A stretch of 62,546 bases of DNA from a virus. The stretch lies in the IMG/VR virus record IMGVR_UViG_3300009551_000015, positions 1-62,546 of that record. One strand, 5' to 3'. Positions 2,178 through 43,649 of this stretch are shown here, one piece after another. The notes under the pieces were generated by a model. That model saw nothing but the letters and a program-made list of their open reading frames with translations, was not told where the DNA came from and did no database searches. Made by a program: the position numbers and the translations under genes. Each line of letters starts with the position of its first letter. Position 1 is the stretch's first letter.

Positions 2178-3295
2178 TGAATCACCTCTGCCATGATGTC
2201 TTCGAACATCTGATTAACCGCCCGGTGCTGCGATTCCTTCACTGGCTTGATGTAGTGCTTGTTGGTAGTCGCCTCATCAGAGTGCCCGAGCATCTCCTGA
2301 ATGTCCTTCGTCTGCGCATACCCGCGATCCTTCAACAGCGTTGCGCACGTTCGCCGGATGCAGTGGAAGTCCAGCCAGTCGATGCCCGATTCCTTCTGTG
2401 CAACCTCAAGCCAGCGCTCCCCGGCCCGCTGGCGAGATACCCATTTGTTGGGGTCTAGCTTGCTGCCGAAGATGAACTGCCGATCGGTCAAAGCCGAGCA
2501 TCGCTCAATCAATGCGATGCGGATATTCGCGGGTAGCGGCACCTCTCGAGTCTCGCCGCCCTTTGTGCCCTTGATCTTAGAGCCAGACTCCACGCTCTCA
2601 TCTACAATCAGCGTCTTCTCACGAATGTCCGATACCCGGAGCGCTATCAACTCGCCGATGCGAAGACCACAGCAGAACAGTATCCGGTAAACCAGCCCAT
2701 GCTCCCCGGTCATATGGCAAACCTTCTGCGCCTGTTCGAACGTCAGCACTTTGGTTTCGGCCGATGGCTTGGCAAGCTTCTTAAGTTTGATCTTGGGCAT
2801 CGGGATCTCGAGGATGAAGCCGTTATCGTGCGCGTACTCAAACACGGTCACCACGGCGTTTCGGATCTGAACTAGCGTTGAGGCACCTAAGCCAGCCTTC
2901 GTCTGGTAGAAACTGTCCACGTGATGCCGTCGAACGTCACCGATTCGCATGGCCCCGAAGAATGGGGAGACGTGATTCCGCCATGTGCATTCATTGTTTT
3001 TGGCCGTATTCCCGGCCCAAGTGCGCGTCGGCAGGAACACCTGACGGTAGAAGTCCTCGACCGATATCCCGTCATCCATGCGAACGTTGCCGCCGCACTC
3101 AAGACGGATAACCTCGGCGAGCTTCTGCCATGCTGCAGCCTTCGAATACTGCTCACAATCCAGCGTCTTTGACCGATGCCGTCGCTTTTCCTTGCCGTTG
3201 GCCTGAAGCTTGTAAACGTGCCAGTGAAGCTTCCACATCTTGCGACGTTTACCAACCTTCTGAATACACCCTCGCTGATACCTTTCTCTGCTCAC
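2174..3295 (-). CDS. int: Tyrosine recombinase integrase
   Basis: 373 aa from a GTG at 3293-3295; the frame is open further to 3364 (ATG, 396 aa). The family usually begins near MSRERYQRG, which favours the GTG, although AGGAGG is 14 nt upstream. It has an N-terminal basic arm-binding region, a SAM-like core-binding domain (about 75-165) and a catalytic domain with Arg212 (GLRIGEL), Lys near 245, His311 and Arg314 (HCIRR), His338 (LGHSD) and nucleophile Tyr348 (KHYIK). It should integrate and excise the phage at attP, probably the repeat-bearing gap at 1595-1796. It overlaps the Xis-like gene only if the long start is used. Confidence 0.95.
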   Translation of the reverse strand: MSRERYQRGCIQKVGKRRKMWKLHWHVYKLQANGKEKRRHRSKTLDCEQYSKAAAWQKLAEVIRLECGGNVRMDDGISVEDFYRQVFLPTRTWAGNTAKNNECTWRNHVSPFFGAMRIGDVRRHHVDSFYQTKAGLGASTLVQIRNAVVTVFEYAHDNGFILEIPMPKIKLKKLAKPSAETKVLTFEQAQKVCHMTGEHGLVYRILFCCGLRIGELIALRVSDIREKTLIVDESVESGSKIKGTKGGETREVPLPANIRIALIERCSALTDRQFIFGSKLDPNKWVSRQRAGERWLEVAQKESGIDWLDFHCIRRTCATLLKDRGYAQTKDIQEMLGHSDEATTNKHYIKPVKESQHRAVNQMFEDIMAEVIQ

Positions 3296-3327
3296 AAGTT
3301 TACGTGCGCCCTCCTGAATCGGAGATT

Positions 3328-3540
3328 TTAGCACCGGGCACCTTCCTTGGATGCCGCATAGCACTTCTCTTGGAACGCATGGATATCCTGCGGCCGAAAC
3401 CGAACGTTGCGCCCAAGCTTGACCCTAGGAATCTGCGGTGTGCGCTTGCCATTCGAATGGTCGATTACCCACTGAGGCGAAACGCCCCACATTTGGGCTA
3501 CCTGCTCGGCTGTAAGGAGATTCTCTGTAGGGCTGTTCAC
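3328..3540 (-). CDS. Excisionase-like helix-turn-helix protein
   Basis: 70 aa from GTG at 3538-3540, chosen because the GTG overlaps the upstream stop as GTGA and GGAGG lies 8 nt before it; the frame is open to 3615. A MerR/AlpA-type winged HTH fills the protein: LLTAEQVAQMWGVSPQWVI, then a loop and RVKLGRNVRFRPQDIHAFQ, the usual R-x-R-F wing. Proteins of this type next to int act as recombination directionality factors. It lies directly upstream of int. Confidence 0.85.
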   Translation of the reverse strand: MNSPTENLLTAEQVAQMWGVSPQWVIDHSNGKRTPQIPRVKLGRNVRFRPQDIHAFQEKCYAASKEGARC

Positions 3541-15801: not shown

Positions 15802-16263
15802 ATGCAAACACGCGCGATTTCGATAGTTGTGCTGATCGGCGCTCAACTGCTGGGCCAAGTTAAGCCGACTCACCAGGATGGCCGCATCAGGGTATTTGTG
15901 GGCGATTCCCAGACGTGGGAGGCTACCAGCTTCGGGGCGGGTGCCGCAACCCGCTCCATTGCAAACGCTATGGGCAGTTCGCACGCTGGCACGGTAAAGC
16001 TGACCGTGGCCGTCATGAAGCACCTCGATGAATACTGCAAGACGGTGACAGTGGTTAACCAGCCAGAGAATGCCGACCTGTTCATCCGCATGGACCATAA
16101 CCGCGGCATGTGGTCAGTGCATGAGGATATGGCGGTATTCGACCGCAAGGGCGAGATGGTGTTCGTGGCGTCGTCGGTGAAGGTTTCGCGCGACGTTAAG
16201 CAGTTCTGCGAGAGCCCTGTGTTCGGGCCGCAGCCAGTGAAGAAGCGTAAGCACAAGCCCTAG
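15802..16263 (+). CDS. Secreted protein, probable lysogenic-conversion gene
   Basis: 153 aa. Residues 1-19 (ISIVVLIGAQLLGQV) look like a signal peptide. The mature part reads RIRVFVGDSQTWEATS, then a Gly/Ala-rich loop, a helix, TVTVVNQPENADLFIRMDH and MAVFDRKGEMVF. I associate this arrangement (VTDSxSWE ... C ... ADY ... D) with a secreted family common in Acidobacteria. Last gene of the rightward block, so probably expressed from the prophage and acting in the envelope. Function unknown. Confidence 0.7.
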   Translation: MQTRAISIVVLIGAQLLGQVKPTHQDGRIRVFVGDSQTWEATSFGAGAATRSIANAMGSSHAGTVKLTVAVMKHLDEYCKTVTVVNQPENADLFIRMDHNRGMWSVHEDMAVFDRKGEMVFVASSVKVSRDVKQFCESPVFGPQPVKKRKHKP

Positions 16264-16547: not shown

Positions 16548-16622
16548 TCAGGCGAGTGCAAGCATGCCCTTCCGCGGCGGGAAGATAGGCGGGCTATCCC
16601 TCCACTGCTGCGCTTCGATCAC
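16548..16622 (-). CDS. 24-aa coupled peptide or 5' part of a frameshifted gene
   Basis: GTG at 16620-16622 overlaps the upstream stop as GTGA. It encodes MIEAQQWRDSPPIFPPRKGM then LALA and stops. The reading frame that continues rightward into the 75-aa gene (LHSPDRADLLRQREEW) is one base off and open through this point, so a frameshift, natural or from sequencing error, could join them. Confidence 0.35.
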   Translation of the reverse strand: MIEAQQWRDSPPIFPPRKGMLALA

Positions 16623-17302
16623 AGTTCCGCGACTCTCCATGCGGCACCATCATTCCAAATGCGATAGAGCCCGGGTATTAGCGCACCTGGCACTAGAGGA
16701 TTGCCGCGGCGGTCGAGCACGGGCATAGCGGGGAATGTGTCAATCGAAAGCGAAACTGGGCCAATGTTCGGCGTCTCGACAATCCAGTTCAGCGTCTGGT
16801 ATTTATCGAGCCGCGTGAGTTGCGTCGAACAGGCAGAGACGTAATCGGTCCCCGGCACTAGCGGCGCATCGGGATTGTCGGGCAACGGCTGCGGTGCGCA
16901 GGTTTGAGGGTTCCCGCTCGAGTTGGCCGACGCGGGCCCGCTCTGCATTGCCGTTCGACTGGCGAGTACCGCGGTGTTGAACCCGACCTGCACGGCCCCA
17001 TTTCCGTACATTACCGTAGCGTCCCCATTGAATGAGAGTGACGACAGCGGAATCGGGTCGCCAGCGGGCGGAATGAACATCAGAGAGGGAGTAGGCGCCG
17101 GCATGGAGAGATGGAACTGCCCCGTAGCGTCCACTGTCACCGTGAGCGGCGGGTCGACCACGAGTGGCTTCCACGTGTACAGAGAGTCGCCTGGCTGCCA
17201 CCAGTAGATGTAGGGCTTTCGGGTGACGGGCGTCTGCGCGGTGACAGAAAGGGCAAGTGTACTGAGTAGCGCGTACCGTTGAATGCTGCGGATCAAGGCC
17301 AT
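16619..17302 (-). CDS. Exported protein of the tail-adhesin cluster
   Basis: 227 aa from ATG at 17300-17302. An N-terminal signal peptide (RYALLSTLALSVTAQ, cleavage after A-Q likely) precedes a beta-rich, Pro/Thr/Ser/Asn-rich protein with a central low-complexity segment and one Cys pair. It follows the LamG-like gene by 4 bp. No family recognised. A secreted protein in a tail-fibre operon is unusual. Confidence 0.65.
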   Translation of the reverse strand: MALIRSIQRYALLSTLALSVTAQTPVTRKPYIYWWQPGDSLYTWKPLVVDPPLTVTVDATGQFHLSMPAPTPSLMFIPPAGDPIPLSSLSFNGDATVMYGNGAVQVGFNTAVLASRTAMQSGPASANSSGNPQTCAPQPLPDNPDAPLVPGTDYVSACSTQLTRLDKYQTLNWIVETPNIGPVSLSIDTFPAMPVLDRRGNPLVPGALIPGLYRIWNDGAAWRVAEL

Positions 17303-17306
17303 TCCC

Positions 17307-18080
17307 CTATATTCCGTACCTGCAATGCAGGTAGGTTTCATTGGTCGTCACATCGCCGCCTGAAAGGTCAGTGCTGTAGTAGATGATTTCAGCGATGCTC
17401 CCCACAAAGGTGTGCAGGCTGGCAGAGTACGCGAATATCAGTTCGGGCGGATTGACGTTAAGATTGTTCCCGCCACCAGCCAGTGAGATAGGCGATTCGT
17501 TAACCCGGAATTGGATAAGCGAGCCAGATCCAGATGCAGGCCCTCGCTGCAATATATTGCCCTGATACCAAGTGCTTACAGTCGTACCGGTTGATGTGCA
17601 GTTGCCGAAAGTGGTGACCGACGTGTCATAGCAGAACCCGAAAGATCCGAGCCCGACGTTCGTGTACACGGTGATTGTGTTGTCGGCAGAAGGTCCGCCC
17701 ATAATCCCACGGGCACCTCCAGCAAGCGTGTTGTTCCAAACGATAAAGACTGAATGCTTATCGCTGGCACCAATGGTAGATCCGCCAATGGTGGCCCATG
17801 CGCTGCCTGCGCTGGTGATCGCTGGGAGGCTATTAAGCTGGCTCGTGCTGAATGTGAGCGTCCCCGATGCGGTGGTGGCCGTCCTGCTGTTCCCAGATTG
17901 GTCAGCCCAGGAAGTTACAGAAGAACCGTTTGAACATGCTCCGCTGCATGTGACTCCGGCGTCCGCTTTATACCAGAACTCGGAACCACTAACCGGGGAG
18001 CCGCAAGTTGAAATGCTGGTTTGGGGAGATCCAAGGGGCATGCCCTGCAAGAGGCAAAGCAGCAGAATCATCGACTTCAT
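17307..18080 (-). CDS. Exported LamG-like lectin-fold protein
   Basis: 257 aa. A signal peptide (SMILLLCLLQGMPLGSPQ) is followed by a concanavalin-like LamG domain: FWYKADAGVTCSG, SVTSWADQSGNSRTAT, central strands, and the typical end FVGSIAEIIYYSTDLSG then YLHCRYGI. Cys pairs suggest disulfides and thus an oxidising, extracytoplasmic site. Could bind glycans at the cell surface. ATGA overlap with the upstream gene. Confidence 0.75.
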   Translation of the reverse strand: MKSMILLLCLLQGMPLGSPQTSISTCGSPVSGSEFWYKADAGVTCSGACSNGSSVTSWADQSGNSRTATTASGTLTFSTSQLNSLPAITSAGSAWATIGGSTIGASDKHSVFIVWNNTLAGGARGIMGGPSADNTITVYTNVGLGSFGFCYDTSVTTFGNCTSTGTTVSTWYQGNILQRGPASGSGSLIQFRVNESPISLAGGGNNLNVNPPELIFAYSASLHTFVGSIAEIIYYSTDLSGGDVTTNETYLHCRYGI

Positions 18081-19384
18081 CGAGCGACCCTCACATTCAG
18101 CACGATTGCAGATCCTGGTGTAATGGATGCGCTGGTGTTATTGCATGCCTTCGCGTTGACCGTGTTAGTAGTCGGCCAAACCCATATATAGAGCGACCCA
18201 TTAGTACTTGGAACATACCCAGTGACCGCTGTCGGATCGCCATTCACATTAGCGAAGAATGCATCGGTTGATGCTGTCCCCGTGATGGTTACGGTTGCGG
18301 TCGAGGAGCAAGCCCCCGATGCTATGGCAGATGTCCCTAGCGTTATCGTTCCACTGCCAATCGTCTGCGTCAGGGTCGCGCTACTTGGAATCGTCGTCCC
18401 GTTGACGCTGGTAGTGTTCGAGAGCGCAGCGGCAGTCTGCGCAGCCGGAAGAGTTCCCGTCGTGATGTTAGTAGCAGAGATCGTGCATGTTGAACCAAGT
18501 GTGCAGGTTTGCCCGTTGACAGTGGTGGCCGCATTAGATCGCGCGACGGCCGAGAAAGCTACCCCGCTATCCTGAATCGTCTTTCCTCCAGCCCCGGTGA
18601 TGACGTTGCCAGTGGCGAAGTTGCCAGTGCCCTTGACGTTCCCGCCCGGGGGGGTCGTAGTTGCTGCGGCGACGTAGGATATGGAATCGGTTCCTACCGT
18701 CGCGATCTGGGTAGTGAGGTTCCAGCCAGTGTTCGCGTTGGTTGTTCCATTAATTACCGGAGTCGTGCCAGTGTAATTGATGTTCGATGCCGAATTGTAG
18801 TCGGCGGCCCGCGTCAGCACATAAGGGACACCGCCAGTGCCGAGAGTGGTAAGCGTGTAAACGCCATTCTGCAGCGCCGATGCCTGCGTCTTGATGAGCA
18901 CTCGATCGTTCAGCAACACGGTGTAGCCATCGATGGTCAGTGCGCCGTTGCTGCCGGCCGTCAGTGTCGCGCCCACGCCTGCGGTCCCATTGCTATAGGT
19001 TGGCGAGTTCGATAGCACGGCCGTGGTAGCCGCCTCGACCGCTACGGCAGGATTCACCGATGCGATGGCATCTGCGACAGAGGCCGTGGTCGCCAAACTG
19101 CCCGGCGTCAAGTCTGGTGAGCACAAAGCGCCATTGCCAGAGCCATTGCCGCAAATGACATGAGTGGTGCTCGTGATCGTCGCTCCACTGCCTGTAGGGC
19201 ACGCCGTTCCCGTCGACACGAAATCGCCGTTGGCATCGATATTGACGCATCCTGGAGTCGGCACTCCGTGGCTCGTCACGAGCTCATTCCCGGTGCCAGT
19301 GACCTGGTTAATCTGATTCGGCGACACTGGGCGTTGGCCGTACAGCATTGCGGCGCCCAAGAGCGCCAACAGCAAGATTTTCAT
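18077..19384 (-). CDS. Exported tail-fibre-like protein, paralogous N-terminus
   Basis: 435 aa. Residues 1-17 are a signal peptide (KILLLALLGAAMLYGQ). The next 60 residues (RPVSPNQINQVTGTGNELVT, then [18 protein letters not shown]) repeat those of the 800-aa protein upstream. The rest is Gly/Thr/Asn/Ala-rich with fibre-type repeats and a C-terminal beta domain (residues about 330-435) with four Cys. It looks like a tail adhesin by composition but carries an export signal. Good AAGGAAAA site. Confidence 0.75.
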   Translation of the reverse strand: MKILLLALLGAAMLYGQRPVSPNQINQVTGTGNELVTSHGVPTPGCVNIDANGDFVSTGTACPTGSGATITSTTHVICGNGSGNGALCSPDLTPGSLATTASVADAIASVNPAVAVEAATTAVLSNSPTYSNGTAGVGATLTAGSNGALTIDGYTVLLNDRVLIKTQASALQNGVYTLTTLGTGGVPYVLTRAADYNSASNINYTGTTPVINGTTNANTGWNLTTQIATVGTDSISYVAAATTTPPGGNVKGTGNFATGNVITGAGGKTIQDSGVAFSAVARSNAATTVNGQTCTLGSTCTISATNITTGTLPAAQTAAALSNTTSVNGTTIPSSATLTQTIGSGTITLGTSAIASGACSSTATVTITGTASTDAFFANVNGDPTAVTGYVPSTNGSLYIWVWPTTNTVNAKACNNTSASITPGSAIVLNVRVAR

Positions 19385-19432
19385 GTGATTTTCCTTTTGA
19401 AATGTTGCAAGATCAGGATAGGTTGCAGTGTT

Positions 19433-21835
19433 TTACTGCCACTCAACCCAGCGATTAACCGATCCGCCACCGCTTGCTAAGGTCGCTTTATAGTAGTTGC
19501 CGGGGAGGACGATAAAAAACGATGATACGTCCCTACCCGTAGTTTGATCTGACCCAACAACGTAAGTGGTTGGAGTGGTAGAACTGTCGGTCTGCACAAA
19601 CAACTCATCATGCCCCGTGCTTGAGTTATTTCCAACCGTGGCTATGATGGAAACATATAAAGGGGAAGAACCTGTGTTATGGTACACCGTGCCAAAAGCA
19701 CGCGACCCAGTGACATTGCTCTGTGCAGTGGGTGCACCGCCACCTCCCGCTGACCCATTGCTCATCGCCGTTATCCTGCCCTTAGCGTCTACCGTTGCAT
19801 TGACGTTGGTGTAGGAACCTGCGGTCACAGCCGTATTTGCAAGGGTAGGATTCGGGTACGTCCCTGTTAGATCTCCACCAGCCGAACCTGATGGCGCGCC
19901 GCCACCTGATCCGTTGGCGATTGTCGTGATTCTGCCCTTGGAATCAACGGTAATATTCGAGTTGGTATAGGCCCCTGGCGTAGCTGCAGTATTTGCCAGT
20001 GTTAGAACACCCGTGCTAGCCAGAGTCGCGTCGCCACTAACTGTACACGGAGCATAGAGAGTACCACCTGCGTTGCCGCACGGCACCTGCCCTGCTAACG
20101 GCGCGGCGTTGGGTAGGACTTCAGTTCCGTTGATTAGCTTGAAGCTGGACCCACCTCCGCCATCAAACAGATTCGCGAGAAAGGACAGGCCGACGCCCTC
20201 CACTGTCCTCGTATAGCTGATTGTTCCGAACGTATTTCCGCTGTTGGTTTCCTTGAACCTATATACGGGGGCCCATGTTCCAGACGCGGGTTCCTCTACC
20301 TCAAATCCGATCAAGTTTAGCAGGCTGCCAAACTGAACATTCGTGCCTAACGTAAAGCACCTCGCTGAACTAGTACAGCCAGAGTTGATGAACGTCGAAG
20401 GGGTAAGTATTGGGCCAAACCCGGCATAGACGCCGTAGTCGATCGCGTGGTTGCAGTTGATACCGTACGAGTTAGAGACAACCGAATGCTCGCTCTCGAT
20501 CATCAGGCACACGTCATAACCGATCGCGAAACTTCGGGACATGTCATTCTCTTCGTGCTCACTCGCGCTGGTGGTCAACCCGACAAGCCCGTTCGCGCCC
20601 GCAACGGGAAAAGCAAGGCTTCCCTGTGCCGTGTTGAAATCCGCAACCACATGATCATAGTCGGTATTCAATGCGTTGAGTAGGTTAGATGCCCACTCAT
20701 TCCCGCGTTGGTTATCAGGAAATCTGAGATCGACGTACTTAACTGTCACCGATGACGCTACCGCGCCGGATGCGGGTGGTTTAGCGAAGAGGATATCGAT
20801 TGTATTGGTAGAGATGACGCTGGAGACAGCGGTAGATGTGATGTTGAAGATAACCCCGCTGGTCTGCACTCCAGTACCGAATTGGTCGATGATCGGAGTA
20901 ACCGCTTCACCCTCAATCACCCAATTGCAAAACTGCCCAGATGCAGCGGTGGAAGGTAGCCCAATAGCGTAAAAATTGTTCGTCTGCCCGCTTCCGGTCT
21001 CCTGAACCAAAGAGTTCAGGTTATAGATCGCGGATCTAAAAAATAACCTGCCACACACGCCAGCGTTGTTCGCGATTGCGGATCGTATAACAAACGCCGC
21101 ATCTGAGCCGGAATAATCCACCACCCCAGTGGTTTTGTTCTGTGCATAGTAGGTTCCAGAACTGAGATAGAACGTGTATCCTGCGCCAGATGCCGCCGCG
21201 ACCCCCGTCAGAAGAGAGCCGTCAACCGCGGGAAGCTTCGAGGCCGCAGTCAATTGGACGACGTTATTCGCGCCTGTCCCCAAAGTTCCCTGTGCGGCCG
21301 TCCCGAGCTGCAGATTTGTTCGTGCCGTCGCTTTATTGGCAAGCTCCGAAAGATTGTTCGACGGGTCCAAATACGTGAAGTCCTTTGGAACACCGGAATC
21401 GATGACGCGACCAGAGGTGTCCCATGCGAGGAAATTTCCGGCGACATAGGCGCTGGAACCCAATGCGGTTCCGATCAGCTTAGTGACGCTAGTACCGTAA
21501 AGCGTTACGGCTTGTCCGGTGATTCGATTGGCATCGACATAGCCTGTGCCGCTTGGCGTAACCCCCGAGCCATTGCCGACCGTCATCAACTGGCCCGTAC
21601 TGGTTCCTCCTGGAATGGTGGCAAAGGTTGTGCTGCCGCTGCCCGTCCCGCACTCTGCCCCAGTGGATATGAAGTCTCCATTGGCGTCGATCGTCACGCA
21701 GCCGGGGGTTGGTACACCATGGCTGGTTACAAGCGTGTCGCCAGTCCCCGTTACTTGATGGATTTGATTAGGCGCGACAGGGCGCTGCGCATAAAGTAAA
21801 GCGCATGTGAGCGCTAACAGCCAAAATCGTTTCAT
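19433..21835 (-). CDS. Large exported pectate-lyase-like/fibre protein
   Basis: 800 aa. Signal peptide ([16 protein letters not shown]), a shared [20 protein letters not shown] segment, Gly-rich collar, then a probable right-handed beta-helix (about 230-590) with repeated short strands, [10 protein letters not shown] and [13 protein letters not shown] segments, typical of glycan-acting tailspikes. The C-terminus has two [20 protein letters not shown]-type repeats of tail-fibre proteins and a small terminal domain. It is the largest member of the exported cluster. Could be a tailspike or a surface protein. Confidence 0.75.
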
Positions 21836-21845
21836 GATGTCCTCT

Positions 21846-22400
21846 TTACTTGCCTATCCGAAAGGCCAACACTTCGTGAATTAAGAATGCTACCGATGCG
21901 ATGAACCCGCTAAGAATCGCTCCCGCAATCGCGACGACCTTCTGCATCACGGTCATGCCGCCCTTTGCCAGATTTTTATAAGCCTCGCGTTCTTTCTCCA
22001 TCTCAGTGACGCGCGTCTCCAGCGAGTCGAACAGGTTGCTTATATTCTCGGGGCTCAATTCGTCAGTCCCGATCTTTTCTTTGTCCATGCGATCCAGGTC
22101 GATCTTTGCTTGAGCCTTGTACTCTGCCAATGCCAAAGTGCCGGCTGCTTTTACATCGGCCATTGCAACGGTTATTCTTGCCTCAATCGCTTGAATTTCC
22201 ATACGTGACGCCTTATCGCCTTCTACACGGTCAACCTTACGACTAAGGTCTTCCATTTGAGTCCTCATGTGCGACACATCTTGCCGCAATGCGACGACGG
22301 TTTCGTTTACGCCGGAAATGGCTTGCAAGATCTCAACCTTGTCATTCATCGGCATGGATTTGGATGGCATTATGAGGTCTCCTATGGCGAGTGCTGCCAT
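21846..22400 (-). CDS. Coiled-coil protein with C-terminal membrane anchor (holin-like candidate)
   Basis: 184 aa, AAGGAG site. A long coiled coil (about 20-145; [20 protein letters not shown]) is followed by a Gly-Met turn and one membrane segment ([20 protein letters not shown]). Proteins of this plan next to lysozyme genes are often annotated as holins or phage membrane coiled-coil proteins. Single membrane span, so a class III-like or accessory role is possible. Confidence 0.55.
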
Positions 22401-22428: not shown

Positions 22429-22884
22429 CTATGACTGGAACAAAGACTTCTCAGCAGCGCGACGGCTTACAAGCCCCGGAAGCACCTTGTCACCTGCGCG
22501 AACCCATCTCCCAAACTCGTTAGCCGCTCCCGATATATCTCCGCTGTTGATCTTGCGCAGTAGAGTCGAAGTTGAGAATGCCGCGCAGCCAAGATTGAAG
22601 ACGAAACTCACCAGAGCATCGAATTGATTCTGGGTGATCGGAGGCCCGACCTTCCCATCAACACAGCGGGCCGCTGCTTCAATATCGATCCGCAGCCGCT
22701 CTTCTGCCTGTTCCTGCGTTATGGTCATTCCCTCGGTGACGTTCGAGGTAGATCCATAGCCGATAGTCAGAACGCCGATCGGGTGATCATTCGAGCGAAC
22801 AGCATCGCGGTATGCCGTTAAAACGCAGCCTTCGAATCTCTCTATTAAATTCAAGCACTTTTGCGACGGAGACATGATGAACAT
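22429..22884 (-). CDS. GH24 lysozyme (endolysin)
   Basis: 151 aa. The T4/P22-type glycoside hydrolase 24 core is intact: catalytic Glu18 in LIERFEG, Asp27 in YRDAV and Thr40 in GVLTIGYG. These are followed by TITQEQAEERL, NQFDALVSFVFNLG and LVSRRAAE, all typical of the family. It cleaves peptidoglycan at the end of infection. There is no signal peptide, so a holin is needed; candidates are the 109-aa two-span protein and the 184-aa protein. No Shine-Dalgarno is visible before either possible ATG. Confidence 0.95.
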   Translation of the reverse strand: MFIMSPSQKCLNLIERFEGCVLTAYRDAVRSNDHPIGVLTIGYGSTSNVTEGMTITQEQAEERLRIDIEAAARCVDGKVGPPITQNQFDALVSFVFNLGCAAFSTSTLLRKINSGDISGAANEFGRWVRAGDKVLPGLVSRRAAEKSLFQS

Positions 22885-24451: not shown

Positions 24452-24976
24452 TCACTTTCCCCCGAATCCGTAGATGAGCATAAACCCCGGCTGAAGCGTT
24501 GCCGATACAAGCGCACCATCCGTACCCCTCTGCGGGTTGCTTGCCTTCATGTAAGGCATCACGTACAGATTGGTCCTGCCCATGCGAATAGCCAGCCCAG
24601 CGCTACCCGTAAATGCCGGCGAAGTGGTCCCCGTCGCCTGAACCGAATTAAATCCCGCCTGCACGATGGTCAGCAGCGATACCGAACCCGAAGTAGACCG
24701 CGCGGCCACATAAGCGAAGCCAGTGGTGATGGTCGACGCGAGCGGCTGTGCGCCCTTCGGCACGGTCGCTACGGGAGTTGAAACCGTCGACCACGAGAAG
24801 ACGTTCGAACTGCCCAATCGCAGAGCAACGTCGACATCTGCACTCGCTGCATGGATGTCGCCGCGGGTCCATGATGGCCCAATACCGACGGTCATGCTTG
24901 GCAGCGTGGTATCGGTGGTTGTGGCTTGCGCCCATGCGGAGCAAGCGAGCAGAAGCGAAAGCGAGAGTTTGTTCAT
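24452..24976 (-). CDS. Exported protein, small outer-membrane barrel-like
   Basis: 174 aa from ATG at 24974-24976; a signal peptide (KLSLSLLLACSAWAQ) is followed by alternating beta strands typical of small outer-membrane barrels (MTVGIGPSWTRGDIHAASAD ... TTGFAYVAARST ... QPGFMLIYGFGGK). No enzymatic motif. Possibly an envelope-remodelling or receptor-masking protein made by the phage. Different in sequence from the fibre cluster but shares the A-Q signal end. Confidence 0.6.
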   Translation of the reverse strand: MNKLSLSLLLACSAWAQATTTDTTLPSMTVGIGPSWTRGDIHAASADVDVALRLGSSNVFSWSTVSTPVATVPKGAQPLASTITTGFAYVAARSTSGSVSLLTIVQAGFNSVQATGTTSPAFTGSAGLAIRMGRTNLYVMPYMKASNPQRGTDGALVSATLQPGFMLIYGFGGK

Positions 24977-24986
24977 TGGCAAACCG

Positions 24987-26699
24987 TCAAGAGATGTACC
25001 CGTAATTCTGGCTGCACGAGCCCGCGCCACCCATGGCAACAATCGGGTAACGCATAACGAAAATGCCCGTAGTAAACAGGGCGCCAACTATGCCGAGATC
25101 ACCTTGGAAGAACAGTAGATAGCCAGTGGGCGAGTCCTTATCGATGACCACCTGCGGGTAGAACCCAAGTTGGTCATCGCCGGGAGTCGACGGCGCATAG
25201 AAGTCTAGCTCCGTGTAGGACCAATAGCGGTCGCGATACGTCCATCCGAGCAGTGGCTTTTCCTCGACGAACCAGATGGCACCGTAGTTCGTGTGCGACA
25301 GATTCTGGTCGTACCCGCCGAAGAAAACGCATGTGTTGTCTTCTTCGTTTTCAAAGGCATAGTACATATGCGGGTCGGGGAGCACAGAAAGTTCTTCGTA
25401 CTCCGTGTAATAGCTGATGTTGAAGCCAGAGGTGGTGTAGTGGCCCCCGGGATCAGAGATGCCATAATCCGCCATGACACCAATGTGCCCATTCGATAGC
25501 TGATACACAGAAGGCGAGATCGCTTCGTTACCCGGGCTACCGCCCCAGCCGACTCCACCAGGTCCACCAGGCAATCCAGTCGGCAGCGTGGGAATGGTTT
25601 CCTGAAAGTTGAATAACGCTTCGCCCGTATCCCATGCCGATCCTGTCCACGGAGATGCCCATAGCTTATCCGCGAGAATTATCGAACTGGCGTCGTAGAC
25701 ATAGTAGTGCGAACAGGCGTTAAGCACTCCTGTAATCTCGACAAACTGCGTGCTGAAAAGCGGCCCGCTATCCGCGCCCGCGAGGTCGACCGTGAATATC
25801 GTAGAATGTGCCCACGATGATGGGTTGGTGGTCGTGTCGTCCAACGCTGTAGAAACCCAAGCCGACGCCTCTCCCGCGTTGGTAAAGCCTGGACCGTAGG
25901 TTATGGTCTGTGCGACGAACATACGGCCGCCTGATATGATTGCGGGACTGCCGGAAAGAAGTGCCTGACTGCCGTGGTGGTAATATCCCACGCTGATATT
26001 TAATATCGAGGACGACCCAACCGATTGCTCGGCAGAGATTGAGTTGTCAGCGAAGACTTTCCTGTAGTAAACATTTAGCGCCGTTGGAGTGCCTGCGTTT
26101 CCGTCGACATACATCACGTGCGCGGTGTTTCCAACCCCATCGTTTACCGCAACCGCGATACCGCCAATTCCGCCCAGTGAAGTCAACTCGTCATGCATGA
26201 TCTGAAAGCTAGACCACGTTCCGCCCGTATCTACGCGATAGAATCCAATCTTGCCTGGGTTTGTTGTGCTGTTAGTCGCAAAAATAAGTGTGGAACCATC
26301 CGGCATGGGCAGCACTTGGTAAGGCTGCGACGTGTATATGTTGGACCCTGCCGTGCCTCCGACCGATGTCCATGCGAGGGTTGCGCAGTCGAAATAGGTG
26401 AGCTGAAACCCGCCGCTAATAGGCGCCAGGTACCATATCTTACTGCCATCAAAATATATTCCACCGGGGTTGGCCAACGCCACCCCAGACGGCGGGTCCG
26501 CTTCCTTGGTCCATGCCCCTCCCGGAGTGCTGAGTGACTTCGACCAAACGTTGATGAACCCCGGATTGCGGTCGCCGCTATCCAAACAGAACAGCGTTCC
26601 GCTGTGCTCAAATGGCCCGTAGCTACCAAGGGGCGTTGACGCGCAGGTATGGCTATCGGTGTAGGAAACCGGAATCGGCCCAGCGATTGGAGTGAACAT
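24987..26699 (-). CDS. Large beta-propeller-like tail adhesin
   Basis: 570 aa. Gly/Ser/Asp/Trp-rich with recurring sialidase-type fragments (ISGGFQLTYFDCATLAW, SLSTPGGAWTKE), each about 50 residues, suggesting a six- or seven-bladed propeller. It starts MFTPIAGPIPVS, with no signal peptide. Third of the long adhesin-like genes after the hub; probably a receptor-binding or depolymerase-type tail fibre. Exact family not recognised. Confidence 0.65.
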   Translation of the reverse strand: MFTPIAGPIPVSYTDSHTCASTPLGSYGPFEHSGTLFCLDSGDRNPGFINVWSKSLSTPGGAWTKEADPPSGVALANPGGIYFDGSKIWYLAPISGGFQLTYFDCATLAWTSVGGTAGSNIYTSQPYQVLPMPDGSTLIFATNSTTNPGKIGFYRVDTGGTWSSFQIMHDELTSLGGIGGIAVAVNDGVGNTAHVMYVDGNAGTPTALNVYYRKVFADNSISAEQSVGSSSILNISVGYYHHGSQALLSGSPAIISGGRMFVAQTITYGPGFTNAGEASAWVSTALDDTTTNPSSWAHSTIFTVDLAGADSGPLFSTQFVEITGVLNACSHYYVYDASSIILADKLWASPWTGSAWDTGEALFNFQETIPTLPTGLPGGPGGVGWGGSPGNEAISPSVYQLSNGHIGVMADYGISDPGGHYTTSGFNISYYTEYEELSVLPDPHMYYAFENEEDNTCVFFGGYDQNLSHTNYGAIWFVEEKPLLGWTYRDRYWSYTELDFYAPSTPGDDQLGFYPQVVIDKDSPTGYLLFFQGDLGIVGALFTTGIFVMRYPIVAMGGAGSCSQNYGYIS

Positions 26700-26702
26700 G
26701 TT

Positions 26703-29309
26703 TTAGTACCAGTCCTGCGGCCGAGCCGTGCTGTACAAGTTGTATGGGAAGCGCCGGCCAGTTCCGTGGTAGCCATAGCCTCCGTAGTATTGACAGTTCG
26801 ATCGGTCGTTGTTCATCGGGCATTCGATCAACTGCACAGTGAAAACTGCGGGGTCTTGCAGCAAATCCCCGATAAGTAGCGACGGGATAGCGTTGTCATG
26901 CGTCAGTCCCATCGGCTTGCGCAAGCCGAACGGCATCTTAATCGTGTGCTGATCGCGCGTCACGAAGCCATGCCCCAACAGTGAATACTTTCCCGACAGG
27001 TTATTGAAGAAGTTCGGATCGAGCGGGACGTAATCGCCTAGCCCGAGGTCGGGGAGCACCTGTCTGTAGTAGCCGTAACCAGTGGCATTATCGAAGTAGA
27101 AAACGTGAAATCCATCTTCAAGATCCTGAACCACGTTTGACTGCACGAAGTACGCCCCGGAAGCAATCACCGATTCCGTTGCCCCCGCCCCCGAAACGAG
27201 ATAAATCCCCGGGGAATCAGCTAGCGGATCGCCACCGTCGAGAATACCGTTTACAAACTGAACTATTACGTCGCCGCCGAGATCACTGCTCTGCACGCAC
27301 AGCCTGGTTCGCTTGGCTACGATGTCTGAGTAATAGTAGTTGCCCGTCCAAGTGGGCGTCGAATACGTGGCGGTCGCGATGTCGTACTTCTTGATCGTGG
27401 CCTTCATGCGATAGCGCAGCGGACTAGCCTGCTTGAACGTTACGTCGGAGTTCCAGAAGGCGTAATAGATCACCTGCCCGACGCGAGCGGCGTCAAAATA
27501 CAGGTTGCACGATGTGGTGTCTGACGTGTTGATCAGCGTCCAAGTCTTCCCACCGTTAGTGGATTTGGTCAAAACAGGCCGCGCCATCTTGTCATGGTCA
27601 GTGCTCTGCGACAGGCAATACAGCACGCCGTCGTGCTTCCATGACCAGTCGAAATCCACATCGGTATTGCCGGGAGGCGAAACGGTTGCTAGATAGTTGC
27701 CAGGCGGTACGGGATCGTAGATTATGCCCGACTGCTTCAGCGAAGTCTGAATTGGCACTGGCGCATCCATTACGTACTGGACATAGTTCCCCTGCGCCGT
27801 GCGATCGAGTGCGTCCTTGACCTTGGCGTCGAACTGCACCTTCGTTGCAACTGGAGGCTTGTCCGACACCAGGATATTGCCATCGCTGAAATCAGGGTGT
27901 ATCCCGGGCGGGAATGCTCCGATGAAACTAAAGGTCAACGGAGTTGTCTCATCCGTGAATCGGGCAACGGTATACGCTTTCGGCCCGCCATGCGCCTGCG
28001 CCCATGGAAGAACTTGAATGTTCTTCGTCAGGCTGTTGTCGTAGTGTGGGTGTGTGAGCGCCAGTGGCCCATCGTTGGTTGAATTCGATGCTGCAAGTGT
28101 GTTCGCGGCGTCGTTGGCATTGCGCGTGGTCAAGAGAAAGTAGTCGTTGAGCGTAATCTGCGGCCGAACGTCGATCGCTTTGAATCCGTAGAAATTGCCC
28201 CCCGTAAAGGGGTATGGCGAGGCCCAGCGGACGCTCGTCAAGGGCCGCGATGTCGTTCCAATATCCTCCACCTGCTCCACCGCTGTCGTTAACTCAAGAT
28301 GCGAGTTGTCCGTGATAGAGGCGATCTCGTACTGGATTCCGTTAAGCCAGAAATGCTGACCCGCCACGAGGCTGCTGAAGTTCGGCGGTAAGGTCGGATC
28401 GACGCTCAGTAGCGTTACGGTCGTGCTGCTGGCATCGCACATTCCCCACGTTCCGGTAAATACCATGTTGAAAGTGTCGCCGGGAACCTGCAGCGTGCCA
28501 CCAGCCAACTGTGCATCGAACCAGAGGTTATCCCAGACTCGAGCCTCGAACGACTTCCACCGCACGCCTGTCTGATGGCCAGCATCTTCTAGCAGCGTTA
28601 CGTCATATTGGTTGGTTACGAAATCGACATGGTAAATCGTCCCGTTGATGGTGATCATCGAAGCGGGCCTGCCGCCTCCAACGATATCCGCGCCATGGAT
28701 TCCGGTGAAGTCGCAGCCACCTGAAAGGATATCCGCGTTGGCTCGCCCCGGAGCGCCAACAAAGTTTCCGAGCTGGTAAGCAAGCGGTATGGTGATGTTC
28801 TTACCGTTGACGTTGCAGATTCCGCTGTAGTCCGACCAGAACAACATGTAATCGTTCGCTAAATCTGGGTCGGGCTCGTGCCAACTATACGCCTGCTGAT
28901 CGAATTGCCAGTAAACGCTCTGCGTGCCGCGAGCCTGAAGCATCGCATTCGTCGTGTAGCGGATCAGAAACTCTGGGTCGTAATCGTATGGGTGCGGAGT
29001 TTCAGGGAGCGCCGTCGAGATCGTGAGCGTTTTGATATTGCTGCTCGCTGGGCCATCGCCAGTGCCCGGGTTGATGACGTAGACCAGATATGGCCCGGGA
29101 GTCGATATCGGATTAACTACGCAGGTTAGCCGAGATGACCAGGAGCCTGACGGCGAATCAACTGCATATGCCGTGGTCTGGTCGCCCCCGTTGAGGTTGA
29201 TGATGCATGCCGAGGTGAAATCGTAGCCGTAAACCGTCAGCGTAAAGCGCGTGGCCACCGGGATATTCTCCGGGTGGATTTGGATGATCGTCGGCGCTAT
29301 GGTTGCCAT
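26703..29309 (-). CDS. Large multi-domain tail adhesin with IPT/TIG start
   Basis: 868 aa. Residues about 5-100 form an IPT/TIG-type immunoglobulin fold (IQIHPENIPVATRFTLTVYG ... PGPYLVYVINPGTGDGPAS). The remainder is beta-rich with BNR-like pieces near 590-760 (STNGGKTWTLINTSD). Good candidate for a receptor-binding or side-tail fibre. No signal peptide, in contrast with the next genes downstream. 3 bp from the following gene. Confidence 0.7.
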   Translation of the reverse strand: MATIAPTIIQIHPENIPVATRFTLTVYGYDFTSACIINLNGGDQTTAYAVDSPSGSWSSRLTCVVNPISTPGPYLVYVINPGTGDGPASSNIKTLTISTALPETPHPYDYDPEFLIRYTTNAMLQARGTQSVYWQFDQQAYSWHEPDPDLANDYMLFWSDYSGICNVNGKNITIPLAYQLGNFVGAPGRANADILSGGCDFTGIHGADIVGGGRPASMITINGTIYHVDFVTNQYDVTLLEDAGHQTGVRWKSFEARVWDNLWFDAQLAGGTLQVPGDTFNMVFTGTWGMCDASSTTVTLLSVDPTLPPNFSSLVAGQHFWLNGIQYEIASITDNSHLELTTAVEQVEDIGTTSRPLTSVRWASPYPFTGGNFYGFKAIDVRPQITLNDYFLLTTRNANDAANTLAASNSTNDGPLALTHPHYDNSLTKNIQVLPWAQAHGGPKAYTVARFTDETTPLTFSFIGAFPPGIHPDFSDGNILVSDKPPVATKVQFDAKVKDALDRTAQGNYVQYVMDAPVPIQTSLKQSGIIYDPVPPGNYLATVSPPGNTDVDFDWSWKHDGVLYCLSQSTDHDKMARPVLTKSTNGGKTWTLINTSDTTSCNLYFDAARVGQVIYYAFWNSDVTFKQASPLRYRMKATIKKYDIATATYSTPTWTGNYYYSDIVAKRTRLCVQSSDLGGDVIVQFVNGILDGGDPLADSPGIYLVSGAGATESVIASGAYFVQSNVVQDLEDGFHVFYFDNATGYGYYRQVLPDLGLGDYVPLDPNFFNNLSGKYSLLGHGFVTRDQHTIKMPFGLRKPMGLTHDNAIPSLLIGDLLQDPAVFTVQLIECPMNNDRSNCQYYGGYGYHGTGRRFPYNLYSTARPQDWY

Positions 29310-29703: not shown

Positions 29704-32700
29704 TCAGAACTTCAGCAACCTGCTTGCACCAGCCGTGAACAGCGTGAACGTCGTAGTTCCATCAGCGAATGTGTCATGCGTGAGTGTCGTTCCGCTGCTG
29801 TACGGGGCTTCATAGTACTTCGCGACGTTGACGGTCACTGTGTTCGGGTCGTCCGAAATCTTGACGATCATCAGTAGCATCTGCTGGAGCTGCGCCTCTG
29901 GTAGAAGCTGGATGATGATATTGCCCGCAGATGTGTCGCAGTTCATGCGGCCATCGGTGTAGTACTGCGTCGTGTTGCTGGCAACGGTGCGCGTCAGGCC
30001 AGAGCCGAAGATGTAGAGTTCGCGGTTCGGCGCGTAATTGTCGGGGCAGTACTCATTCTGTGAATCCTCTGCCCTTACGGTGAAAAGCCACTGGCCGGCG
30101 CTTAGGTTCTCAATCCGCGGCGAAGCCACAACGCCCGTTGTCCCGCTCTTTGGCACTGTCACCCGCGCGCCCTTTATCTCTGGCGCCTTCGCAGGGTCGC
30201 AGATGATAACGATGTCGCCCGAGTTCGGAGTGATTTTCCAAGGGCTTGACAGCGTGAACTCCGTCGGTGAGGTCACCGAATCAACCGTCACCACGTCGCC
30301 CTTATCTGGCCCGCTGAGCACGATAGCCACTTTCCCCGCCGCGAGATCACCTGTTACGCCTGTCGGATAGTAGCCGTTCACGATGTTGGGGTCGCTAAAA
30401 GTAGTCGCCGTGAATGTCGGGTTGAACCGCATCGTCACGAGGTCGAACACCTCGATGAGCGTGGTGAGGTCTGGCAACGTGTGCCCAAGAGCATTCGGCC
30501 CTATCGTCAATACAAACTGCGGGCCAAACAGCGTCGAAGCTGATGCCGTGCTCGATGCGATCGGCATATTGAGGATTGGCACCTCAATGGACGGGTCGAA
30601 CTTAGCCAGCAGAGAAAGCGTGTAGCCCGCCCACTGGTTGAGCGTCATCCCATCGCCGTTAATCGTGATGGTGTTGGACGTTACCGAGAATACCTGCTGC
30701 GCCCAGCATCCGGCGTGAACTAACTGCTGCCACGTGACCGAGAGATGGTTGAATATCGGGTCAGGGCCGCCAGGAGTGGAGACATTGAACGAGCTAATCG
30801 TTAGCGATGTTGCGCCCACGGGAACTAGGGCTTGGCGGTGGAACACGAAGCTTGCCCCGTCAGGCGCCCACTCTGCCATGAACACTTCCCCGCCAGCGTC
30901 GCCCGATTGCCACTGCGTAATCGTTACGGTGATCGTTTCGCCTGCGAGAACGGAGACATATTGCAGTGTCAGGTAGTCGGTGTTGGCGTGCGCAGGGCTG
31001 CTGTTATTCCATGCGCTAACGCCAATTACGTACGTCCCTGTTCGAAGGCTTGATCCCGTTCCGGCGCTCGAACAATGGAACTGCGGGCCGCCAATCTCCT
31101 GATCTATCGCGGTGATTGGCAGGTAGCCACTGATCTGAAGCGTTGCAGTAGGCGTTCCAGCGGCATCCGCACCGTAGAAGGGCATTATGCCGAAGCTCGC
31201 CGATGTGCCCTCGAGGAAATCACCCGATAGCGGCACAGCATGCCCCGGTGACCACGGATAAGGCACCGTCTCAACTACCGTGTTGAGCAGCGGCTCAATC
31301 TGCTGGTAGCCCTGCGGTGACTGCTCTTCTTCGTCCGACCAAGAGTAAATCCCGGAATCGACTTCTACTACATCGAGTTCGACGCTCAGCACCATCGCCT
31401 TGCCATCGCTGGATGCGGCGGGCACAAGGCGAACGGCCGATATTTCTAGTTCCTTGTTCTCCCACCCAAGGAACGCGCAATTAGCCTTTATGATATCGAG
31501 CGGGACAAACTGATACGCGCTCATGTTGCACGTAAATGTTCCAGTCCCCCTACCCTGCAAGCCGGGGTGCGTCGGATCAGCCTGCCAGCGTCGGCGCAGG
31601 AGTTCAATCTTTGCTAACCGCTGCGCGCAGGTGTAGCTGGTCGTGAATGGAAGCTGAATATCCAGCCATCGGCGCTTGCCGCCGTCCGCGATAACGTTGA
31701 TATCACCATGGATGGCAGTGAGTGCCCAGAATTCGGACGGCAGCACTGGGAGGTTGTCCAGGTTATCGTTTACGAGAGAAACGTAGGATATCCCCGAGAA
31801 AACAACCATGTCGCCGATGCTGTAGGTGACGGCATCGTCCCATGCAACGCCCGGCGCATAGCCATGCTTTACATCCTGTGAGTAGCGCGGGAAATCGGTC
31901 GATTGATAGAGGTTATTGGGGGCAATGAACGTGCCCTTTACCCCGTTATACAGGTCGCGAATAGAAACCGTTGGCTTCCAAATAGGAGGCGGCGATACTG
32001 CATTCGCTTGCAGGTCATAGGCCGTGGCTATGGGTTCCACCCACTTAGCGGCTTGGATTACATATTTGCCATCGTTGTAGGTCAGCCGCCCCCCGCAGGA
32101 GGTCAGCATGTTCTGCAATATGTCGCCGGGAGAGCCTGTTAGCTCAAATGAGCCATGGCACTCGTATCGGCTCTCTGTTCCGCCATTGGCAAGGTCTACA
32201 GGTTCAGCGCAGATGTTCTTCGCGATGACCAGTTCGGGATAAGGGATCTCTGTGCCATATTCGGCACCGAAGCCCCACACCTTGCTCGAAAGGGCATCGG
32301 CGATGCAAAGCGCTGCGTTAGCTGTATACCCGCGCCCGTCGGTATCCGGGTCGTAGATGTCGCACTTTCCGCGGACAAGGAAGCTGAACTGCGGAATTCC
32401 GCCCTTGAAGTACTTACTGGTGTTGTTTGGCCCATTGCGATCAAGCTGCAACCGAAGGAAGACCGCCGTCCGTCCGACCCCAGAGCAATAGCGCGTCCAT
32501 TGCCCGCCCGGGAGATTGGTGATCGGGGTTCCACCAGCGGCACCGGGGCTCGACAGCGCCACCAGCTTATTGCCTCCCTGAAAAGGAGTGCCAGCCGTCA
32601 TCCCGGCGAATGTCTCGCCAAGCGCTTGGGTGCCGAGCATCGGCTCGAAGTAGACGTTATTGTTGTAGTCTGGCCACAGCGTTACAGCCTGCCCACCAGA

Positions 32701-33423
32701 GCCCGTTACTACCGCTCCACCATTGAGATACTGGAACGTCAGAACGCCGGAAATGCGGCTGATGATCTGCTGAACCTGAAATGTTCCGTTAAGCGTCAAA
32801 TCGCCCGTAACGTTGCGAATCTTGATCTGGTCGCCCGCCGTAAGGTACGGGATATCGAGATGCAAAACAACAGTGACCAGCCCATGCGCGTTGCGCGATA
32901 TCGAATCAATAGTGTATGGTGTCGAGCCGTTGTTCAGCGGCGTAAAGCTTGTGCCTGATCCCGCATCGGGGTGCCGCGGAATGCTGTATCCCGCGAGTGC
33001 GTTGGTCGGGATCTTATTCGTATCAATCTGCACTCGCTGCTGATCGAATAAAACCTCATCGATCGCCAAGCATGGATGGCACGCAATTTCGATGACGAGA
33101 TCGAGCATCCACGGTACTACCGGGTTTCCTCCATAGGCTCCAGAATCGCCCCATGCGTTGGCATAGATGAGCGTCCCGCCTACTCGCTGCTGCCCATAGA
33201 TCACCCGCCACGGAGCGACGCTGTTTCGGATAGTAGTGGATTGCCCATCTTTTGGTCCCTTTCCCGAAAGCATCGTGCCGACGCCGGAGATTACCTGCGA
33301 CGCTCCCGCCACGACCAAAAACGGGTTGCCAGTAGAGATACCTATTGCAATTTCGGCTACGCCGATAGCAATCTGAGCTCGCTCCTTGAAGTGGCTGGTA
33401 AATAGGTCCGCTATGAACGACAT
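29704..33423 (-). CDS. Central tail hub / tip attachment protein (J-like)
   Basis: 1239 aa. N-terminal segment (VAEIAIGISTGNPFLVVAGA) resembles phage tail-tip proteins, followed by 'TIRNSVAPWRVIYGQQRVGG', the common start of lambda-J/Mu-type hub proteins, then hub domains (about 220-700) and repeated FN3/Ig-like beta domains toward the C-terminus. It closes the tail tip and carries the host-recognition end. Start overlaps the preceding stop (TAATG). One of the largest genes, as expected for a siphovirus hub. Confidence 0.88.
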   Translation of the reverse strand: MSFIADLFTSHFKERAQIAIGVAEIAIGISTGNPFLVVAGASQVISGVGTMLSGKGPKDGQSTTIRNSVAPWRVIYGQQRVGGTLIYANAWGDSGAYGGNPVVPWMLDLVIEIACHPCLAIDEVLFDQQRVQIDTNKIPTNALAGYSIPRHPDAGSGTSFTPLNNGSTPYTIDSISRNAHGLVTVVLHLDIPYLTAGDQIKIRNVTGDLTLNGTFQVQQIISRISGVLTFQYLNGGAVVTGSGGQAVTLWPDYNNNVYFEPMLGTQALGETFAGMTAGTPFQGGNKLVALSSPGAAGGTPITNLPGGQWTRYCSGVGRTAVFLRLQLDRNGPNNTSKYFKGGIPQFSFLVRGKCDIYDPDTDGRGYTANAALCIADALSSKVWGFGAEYGTEIPYPELVIAKNICAEPVDLANGGTESRYECHGSFELTGSPGDILQNMLTSCGGRLTYNDGKYVIQAAKWVEPIATAYDLQANAVSPPPIWKPTVSIRDLYNGVKGTFIAPNNLYQSTDFPRYSQDVKHGYAPGVAWDDAVTYSIGDMVVFSGISYVSLVNDNLDNLPVLPSEFWALTAIHGDINVIADGGKRRWLDIQLPFTTSYTCAQRLAKIELLRRRWQADPTHPGLQGRGTGTFTCNMSAYQFVPLDIIKANCAFLGWENKELEISAVRLVPAASSDGKAMVLSVELDVVEVDSGIYSWSDEEEQSPQGYQQIEPLLNTVVETVPYPWSPGHAVPLSGDFLEGTSASFGIMPFYGADAAGTPTATLQISGYLPITAIDQEIGGPQFHCSSAGTGSSLRTGTYVIGVSAWNNSSPAHANTDYLTLQYVSVLAGETITVTITQWQSGDAGGEVFMAEWAPDGASFVFHRQALVPVGATSLTISSFNVSTPGGPDPIFNHLSVTWQQLVHAGCWAQQVFSVTSNTITINGDGMTLNQWAGYTLSLLAKFDPSIEVPILNMPIASSTASASTLFGPQFVLTIGPNALGHTLPDLTTLIEVFDLVTMRFNPTFTATTFSDPNIVNGYYPTGVTGDLAAGKVAIVLSGPDKGDVVTVDSVTSPTEFTLSSPWKITPNSGDIVIICDPAKAPEIKGARVTVPKSGTTGVVASPRIENLSAGQWLFTVRAEDSQNEYCPDNYAPNRELYIFGSGLTRTVASNTTQYYTDGRMNCDTSAGNIIIQLLPEAQLQQMLLMIVKISDDPNTVTVNVAKYYEAPYSSGTTLTHDTFADGTTTFTLFTAGASRLLKF

Positions 33424-43463: not shown

Positions 43464-43469
43464 ATAGTT

Positions 43470-43649
43470 ATGGAATTCCCTGAAATCAAGGGCTCACTCG
43501 TTTACATAAGAGCGGAAGATGGGTTGCTTTACCCGCTCGATCCCGAACTAGAAACCGTGTTCCGCGAAAGGTTCGCCGAGTACCTTGAGGATCAATTGCT
43601 CAATGGAACAAGCGACAGCACTGATACTTCAATTGGTCTGGCCAGATAG
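43470..43649 (+). CDS. Plus-strand small protein within the GT cluster
   Basis: 59 aa: MEFPEIKGSLVYIRAEDGLL, then helical and Ser/Asp-rich. Exactly fills the gap between two minus-strand glycosyltransferase genes. No clear ribosome site. The composition is protein-like and no minus-strand frame competes. Confidence 0.5.
   Translation: MEFPEIKGSLVYIRAEDGLLYPLDPELETVFRERFAEYLEDQLLNGTSDSTDTSIGLAR

What the first reader, a model, noticed from the sequence alone, without database searches (positions are those of the whole stretch)
16619..21835. Three to four consecutive tail-adhesin-like proteins carry N-terminal signal peptides
The products of 16619-17302, 17307-18080, 18077-19384 and 19433-21835 start with classical signal peptides ending in Ala-Gln or similar, although they have LamG-like, tail-fibre-like and beta-helix-like bodies. 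Virion proteins assemble in the cytoplasm, so export is unexpected. They may be secreted or surface-displayed (receptor masking, polysaccharide hydrolysis, superinfection exclusion, adhesin for the lysogen) rather than virion parts. The larger adhesins upstream in the same operon (24987-29309) lack signals, so the split is clean.
Basis: partly seen in the sequence, partly recalled or inferred. Interest (0 to 1): 0.8.

Follow-up and report, generated by a model that had tools for sequence, protein, structure and literature searches.

The report
Phage tail-fibre proteins with export signals
Four neighbouring genes at the end of this virus's tail-and-lysis gene block encode proteins built like phage tail fibres but starting with a bacterial export tag, and the same oddity recurs in dozens of uncultivated phages, where the tag goes together with cysteine pairs that should form disulfide bonds outside the cytoplasm, which suggests that these phages make part of their host-binding equipment outside the cytoplasm or display it on the cell.

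Summary
The observation largely holds. P1, P3 and P4 (16619-17302, 18077-19384, 19433-21835, minus strand) start at ATGs with ribosome-binding sites and short Sec-type signal peptides. P2 (17307-18080) is weaker, but its relatives lack its N-terminal extension. The bodies are phage fibre-class: P3 matches a solved protein "orf22" (PDB 9efk, E 1.6e-20), and P2 models as a LamG/concanavalin fold. P4's beta-helix is unproven. The "clean split" is not exact: 24452-24976 is also signal-bearing.

The feature is not a quirk of this phage. P3's module VNGQTCTLGSTCTI occurs in about 40 uncultivated viral contigs; 40 of 43 ORFs holding it carry a signal peptide. In homologous fibres the two cysteines are V/I/G/A: Cys pair 35 SP+/2 SP-, no Cys 1 SP+/64 SP- (p about 1e-23). 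SP+ ORFs have even Cys numbers (76:21, p 9e-9). The SP+ runs sit between tail and lysis genes, and one SP+ protein carries a solved tailspike head-binding domain right after its signal. The motif gave no match in 50,697 GenBank phage records.

I conclude they are exported, disulfide-bonded fibre proteins. Whether they join virions at lysis or act on the cell surface is open. The library searched held no description of such a class.

The parts
16619..17302 (-). P1, 227 aa, exported protein of unknown fold, last gene of the run
   Evidence: ORF; SP rule; SD; no family hits
17237..17302 (-). P1 signal peptide MALIRSIQRYALLSTLALSVTA|Q
   Evidence: matrix score 8.7, reached by 2 of 2000 shuffles
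17307..18080 (-). P2, 257 aa, LamG/concanavalin-like phage protein with N-terminal hydrophobic extension; 6 Cys in the mature part
   Evidence: relatives; A4; model; Foldseek; Cys
18024..18080 (-). P2 probable (weak) signal peptide, about 19 aa
   Evidence: hydrophobic ILLLCLL core; absent from SP-less relatives; fails strict rule
18077..19384 (-). P3, 435 aa, tail-fibre-class protein with signal peptide; 8 Cys in the mature part
   Evidence: PHROG; PDB 9efk; Cys
19337..19384 (-). P3 signal peptide MKILLLALLGAAMLYG|Q
19184..19336 (-). N-terminal module shared with P4 (RPV-PNQI-QVTGTG...), directly after the signal peptide
18665..19093 (-). P3 fibre domain homologous to virion proteins (PDB 9efk orf22; phrog_30390, phrog_2647)
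18479..18520 (-). Cysteine-pair module VNGQTCTLGSTCTI
19433..21835 (-). P4, 800 aa, probable fibre/tailspike-class protein with signal peptide; 10 Cys in the mature part
   Evidence: fold not resolved
21788..21835 (-). P4 signal peptide [17 protein letters not shown]
21635..21787 (-). P4 copy of the N-terminal module shared with P3
21846..22400 (-). coiled coil plus C-terminal transmembrane segment, directly upstream of P4; possible lysis gene
22429..22884 (-). endolysin (phage lysozyme)
   Evidence: PF00959 1.7e-45; phrog_7
24452..24976 (-). small signal-bearing protein MNKLSLSLLLACSAWA|Q, possibly an outer-membrane barrel
   Evidence: matrix 13.3; no family; barrel is inference
24987..26699 (-). 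large putative adhesin without signal
26703..29309 (-). large putative adhesin without signal; weak TIG domain
29704..33423 (-). central tail fibre gpJ homologue, no signal
   Evidence: phrog_5616 1.9e-50, phrog_31 1.3e-26

Best explanation
P1-P4 are late-expressed, Sec-exported members of the phage's fibre/tailspike repertoire. Steps supported here: (1) the N-termini are signal peptides added in front of tail-fibre modules; (2) the mature parts are adapted to an oxidising compartment by paired cysteines; (3) in other phages the same class occupies the distal-fibre position between tail/baseplate and lysis genes. Inferred steps: the proteins are translocated by host Sec late in infection, cleaved (often before a Gln), and fold into disulfide-bonded, glycan-binding fibres in the periplasm. 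At lysis they meet the particles and dock through their N-terminal module, as P22 tailspikes dock as the last assembly step (established knowledge, not tested here). The shared N-terminal module of P3 and P4 would be that docking or anchoring adaptor. Export and disulfide bonding: about 0.85. Docking on virions rather than action on the cell or in the medium: about 0.45.
For: Signal peptides in the window. The P3 module search was not selected for signal peptides, yet 40/43 ORFs with the motif have one, versus 88/533 other ORFs in the same loci and 76/1159 in terminase-selected loci. Cys pair versus V/I/G/A at the same two positions: 35:2 versus 1:64 with/without SP, Fisher p 9e-24, never a single Cys. 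Of the two exceptions, one has its SP at Met69 and the other looks like a C-terminal fragment of a gene that is intact and SP+ in the near-identical contig L253. Fibres sharing a generic module: Cys% median 1.26 (SP+) versus 0.25 (SP-), p 5.5e-5. Even mature Cys counts in SP+ ORFs 76:21, p 8.6e-9, after redundancy removal. Window P1-P4 have 2, 6, 8, 10. Fibre identity: P3 versus PDB 9efk E 1.6e-20; SP+ set hits tail fibre, spike, collar and S74 families. The L256 protein has a tailspike head-binding domain after its SP (7eeq E 5.8e-7); L283 likewise matches an SP-less fibre N-terminus. Position: upstream neighbours are baseplate wedge, gpJ and tail fibre, downstream ones endolysins.
Against: In the window itself P1-P4 lie after the lysis genes, and the phage already has gpJ and two signal-less putative adhesins. 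P1-P4 have no recognised head- or tail-binding domain. No virion proteomics exists for any member. Runs of up to eight SP+ ORFs are more than most virions need. Chromosomal exported fibre-like proteins (L445) show that such modules can serve a cell. P2 and P3 score poorly with an E. coli-trained cleavage matrix. SP- ORFs also lean to even Cys counts (159:112), so the parity test is not wholly clean. Sequences sharing a module are not independent events.
Confidence: 0.45

Rival explanations
1. Non-virion reading: the exported fibre-like proteins stay on the surface of the infected or lysogenic cell, or are released, where they mask receptors, bind or cut surface glycans, or glue cells, limiting superinfection or helping spread.
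For: Signal peptides and disulfide signature; in the window they come after the lysis genes and apart from the signal-less adhesins; the phage has an integrase; an alphaproteobacterial chromosome carries several consecutive exported fibre-like ORFs outside any evident prophage (L445); a possible outer-membrane protein is co-encoded at 24452-24976.
Against: No anchor, lipobox or autotransporter domain found in P1-P4; most SP+ contigs lack a phrog_1 integrase; elsewhere the genes sit in the tail module; virion-docking N-terminal modules are retained in some members.
Confidence: 0.38
2. The hydrophobic N-termini are not used for export; the proteins assemble in the cytoplasm as ordinary fibres, the hydrophobic stretch being a membrane-interacting or assembly element.
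For: E. coli-trained matrix scores low for P2-P4; fibres normally assemble in the cytoplasm (established knowledge).
Against: The tight association of the signal with Cys pairs, Cys enrichment and even Cys counts needs an oxidising compartment; classical n/h/c layout in the majority of relatives.
Confidence: 0.1
3. The genes are cellular secreted-protein genes picked up by the phage or by mis-binned contigs.
For: Signal peptides ending in AQ are familiar in some soil bacteria (own knowledge); exported chromosomal fibre-like proteins exist.
Against: No match for P4 in 193 genomes of one acidobacterial class; the Cys-pair module gives only a chance hit in 396 acidobacterial genomes and weak partial hits in 2 of 385 alphaproteobacterial ones; neighbours are tail and lysis genes; the recognisable domains of the SP+ set are mostly phage fibre domains.
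Confidence: 0.07

Closest known systems
Tailed-phage tail fibres and tailspikes (modular receptor-binding proteins; head-binding tailspike domain 7eeq, cyanophage Pan3 tailspike 9vyg/9vyh, orf22 of 9efk)
   Same: Modules, N-terminal docking domain in some members, position in the late operon
   Different: Sec signal peptide and disulfide-forming Cys pairs; the closest isolated-phage relative inspected (Bradyrhizobium phage ppBjS10J-1) has neither the signal nor the Cys motif
Lambda Lom/Bor-type lysogenic conversion genes (own knowledge)
   Same: Phage-encoded exported proteins near tail and lysis genes
   Different: Lom is an Ail-type barrel and Bor a lipoprotein; P1-P4 are fibre-like. The 24452-24976 protein is a better positional parallel to lom
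Bacterial exported proteins with tail-fibre modules (L445, alphaproteobacterial chromosome)
   Same: Export-type N-termini, fibre repeats, several ORFs in a row
   Different: Chromosomal, no phage genes evident nearby; S74-like C-termini not seen in P1-P4; sequence not closely related
DGR variable proteins of phages and bacteria (Roux 2021, PMC8144416)
   Same: Paper separates viral tail targets from cellular targets with signal peptides
   Different: The proteins here combine both features; no DGR was looked for

Membership tests
Phage tail fibre / tailspike proteins | Homology to virion fibre domains | tested here: met
   P3: PDB 9efk 1.6e-20, PHROGs; P2: LamG/ConA phage folds. P4 weak generic fibre repeats only; P1 none
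Phage tail fibre / tailspike proteins | Gene position in the tail module | tested here: inconclusive
   Met in relatives; in the window they follow the lysis genes, same strand
Phage tail fibre / tailspike proteins | Presence in the virion | not testable with these tools
   Needs virion proteomics
Phage tail fibre / tailspike proteins | Known virion-docking N-terminal domain | tested here: not met
   None recognised in P1-P4; met in relative L256
Sec-exported proteins | n/h/c-region signal peptide at a real start codon | tested here: met
   P1, P3, P4; P2 weak
Sec-exported proteins | Cleavage and appearance outside the cytoplasm | not testable with these tools
   Only indirect: Cys signature
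S74-chaperone fibre proteins | C-terminal Peptidase_S74 domain | tested here: not met
   No Pfam S74 hit in P1-P4; 1 of 64 SP+ relatives has it
Autotransporter / lipoprotein / anchored adhesin | Outer-membrane anchor domain or lipobox | tested here: not met
   No anchor family in Pfam, PHROGs or NCBIfam; no Cys at +1 of the cleavage sites
Lysogenic conversion (moron) genes | Expression from the prophage | not testable with these tools
   No promoter excess in the region

The most novel reading that the evidence does not exclude
A broad group of uncultivated tailed phages builds virions in two compartments: heads and tails in the cytoplasm, receptor-binding fibres in the periplasm via Sec with disulfide bonding, joined only at lysis.
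Probability: 0.3. Interest if true: 0.92.

Novelty: new variant of a known kind. Interest (0 to 1): 0.72.

Why it matters
Tail fibres are taken to assemble in the cytoplasm. A recurrent, disulfide-adapted, signal-bearing fibre class across phages with different tail types would mean either a second assembly compartment for virion parts or a large unrecognised set of phage-secreted surface proteins. Both change how host range, superinfection and soil phage-host interactions are read from metagenomes, and both can be tested with one cultivable phage. The diagnostic module gave no match above 33 bits, and none with the Cys pair, in 50,697 GenBank phage records, which may explain why the class is not described in the library searched.

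Tried and rejected
Host assignment to Acidobacteria was tried from the AQ signal style and gene 15802-16263. No acidobacterial genome searched had P4 (193 genomes), a close terminase (best 41%) or the module (396 genomes, one chance hit). Host remains unknown.

The E. coli-trained cleavage matrix was too strict for Leu at -3 and was replaced by a rule with measured error.

AlphaFold of P4 without relatives was useless (pLDDT 33). gpJ, P4 and the N-terminal segment found no useful relatives in viral contigs. phrog_31 and phrog_9 rang in only 4 of 38 records each, because the relatives have other tail and terminase types.

Isolated phages: L249 none. L271 hit only the tail-collar domain and short generic repeats of ordinary tail proteins. 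L306 and L296 hit one Bradyrhizobium phage and seven uncultured Caudoviricetes records by generic repeats.

Literature: ten searches found no report of signal-bearing fibre proteins; Circe gp063 (PMC13001222) and phiCbK (PMC3556154) were read in part and are not such cases.

Median spacing between cysteines did not differ between SP+ and SP-.
Full report
SETTING. The window is a 62.5-kb virus record of a temperate siphophage: integrase 2174-3364, terminase, portal, HK97-type head protein, tape measure, gpJ. Late genes are on the minus strand. After gpJ come two large proteins (26703-29309, 24987-26699), a small signal-bearing protein (24452-24976), the lysis region (lysozyme 22429-22884; a coiled-coil plus transmembrane protein 21846-22400) and then P4, P3, P2 and P1.

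CHECK OF THE OBSERVATION. The four ORFs and their starts are real, each ATG preceded by a purine-rich ribosome-binding site. P1, P3 and P4 have short positive n-regions, uncharged hydrophobic cores and small residues before Gln. The rule used fires at 1.4% of internal Met positions. P2 fails it, but its relatives start where its mature part starts.

WHAT THE BODIES ARE. P3 residues 98-380 match a solved protein, orf22 of PDB 9efk (18 chains in one entry), at E 1.6e-20, and PHROG virion families. I did not read the 9efk paper, so its being a virion fibre is inferred from copy number and the PHROG labels. P2 modelled with 12 relatives (pTM 0.62, pLDDT 59) resembles LamG/ConA phage proteins and, weakly, a cyanophage tailspike. 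P4 shares P3's 50-residue post-signal module and generic fibre repeats; its fold is unresolved. P1 has no relatives.

THE FEATURE IS A CLASS. A viral-contig scan with P3, blind to signal peptides, returned 42 loci. Of 43 ORFs with the module VNGQTCTLGSTCTI, 40 have a signal peptide, against 16.5% of other ORFs there and 6.6% in terminase-selected loci. One exception (L264) has its signal at Met69; another (L252) looks like a fragment of a gene that is intact in L253. Runs of three or more signal-bearing ORFs occur in 8 of 41 such loci and 0 of 67 controls.

INDEPENDENT EVIDENCE THAT THE SIGNALS WORK. (a) The homologous module in ordinary fibres has V/I/G/A where this class has two Cys: Cys pair 35 SP+ / 2 SP-; no Cys 1 SP+ / 64 SP-; never one Cys. 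(b) Among fibres sharing a generic module, the 12 SP+ have median 1.26% Cys and the 55 SP- 0.25% (p 5.5e-5). (c) After removing redundancy, SP+ ORFs have an even mature Cys count in 76 of 97 cases (p 8.6e-9); SP- ORFs 159 of 271. P1-P4 have 2, 6, 8 and 10. P2 has 6 mature Cys while the SP-less relatives of similar length checked have 0-2. These patterns fit disulfide formation outside the cytoplasm. Related sequences are not independent, so the p-values overstate certainty.

FIBRES PLUS A SIGNAL. Members hit tail fibre, tail spike, tail collar and S74 families. Some have, right after the signal, modules that signal-less fibres have at their N-terminus: L283 (44.9% identity over about 48 residues) and L256, whose module matches a solved tailspike head-binding domain (E 5.8e-7) and an SP-less ORF at 56%. 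L306 and L296 look similar by eye. Upstream neighbours are baseplate wedge, gpJ and tail fibre proteins; downstream ones include endolysins. In L273 the baseplate wedge gene is followed directly by two SP+ genes.

WHERE IT OCCURS. A consensus of the module gave no match above 33 bits and none with the Cys pair in 50,697 phage records. P4 has no match in 193 genomes of one acidobacterial class, and the module only a chance hit in 396 acidobacterial genomes. One alphaproteobacterial chromosome has several consecutive exported fibre-like ORFs, a cellular precedent. Six of 37 contigs have a phrog_1 integrase, though contigs may be fragments.

MECHANISM. Export and disulfide folding are well supported by inference (about 0.85). 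The destination is open: docking on particles at lysis (position, head-binding domain) or action on the cell or in the medium (window layout, long runs, chromosomal precedent). I lean slightly to docking and say so as inference.

VERDICT. Observation partly confirmed, interpretation partly supported. New variant of a known kind.

Noticed in passing
window 40971-41342 (-): Between the tape-measure and head genes, a 123-aa protein starts MTDRRNFLKLFGIGATVAPVIAG, close to a twin-arginine (Tat) signal (TIGR01409 14.3 bits, just below the 16.7 cut-off). RR-F-K-type starts also occur in L251 14278-14907 and L252 13872-14411.
   Followed up: partly
window 24452-24976 (-): Small signal-bearing protein MNKLSLSLLLACSAWA|Q after the last signal-less fibre gene; possible outer-membrane barrel in a position like lambda lom.
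   Followed up: partly
window 15802-16263 (+): Opposite-strand 153-aa ORF with a hydrophobic, signal-like N-terminus (MQTRAISIVVLIGAQLLGQ) at the end of the late operon; no family match.
   Followed up: partly
window 42756-45853 (-): Several short ORFs with glycosyltransferase-like starts (LTLIVSVYDRPEWLRLCLQSL, MTALCITRNRRTWLPQAIQC) among the head genes; may modify host or virion glycans.
   Followed up: no
L445 2204-15819: Alphaproteobacterial chromosome with five consecutive fibre-like ORFs, most with export-type N-termini, the largest with a prepilin-like N-terminus (GEAGFMIGPILYVLAIAGVGAG) and S74-like C-termini; no phage genes evident nearby.
   Followed up: partly
L241 4754-14936: A run of eight SP+ ORFs in a contig whose phage shares P3's C-terminal domain (58%) and has gpJ and terminase homologues; best candidate relative of the window's cassette.
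   Followed up: partly
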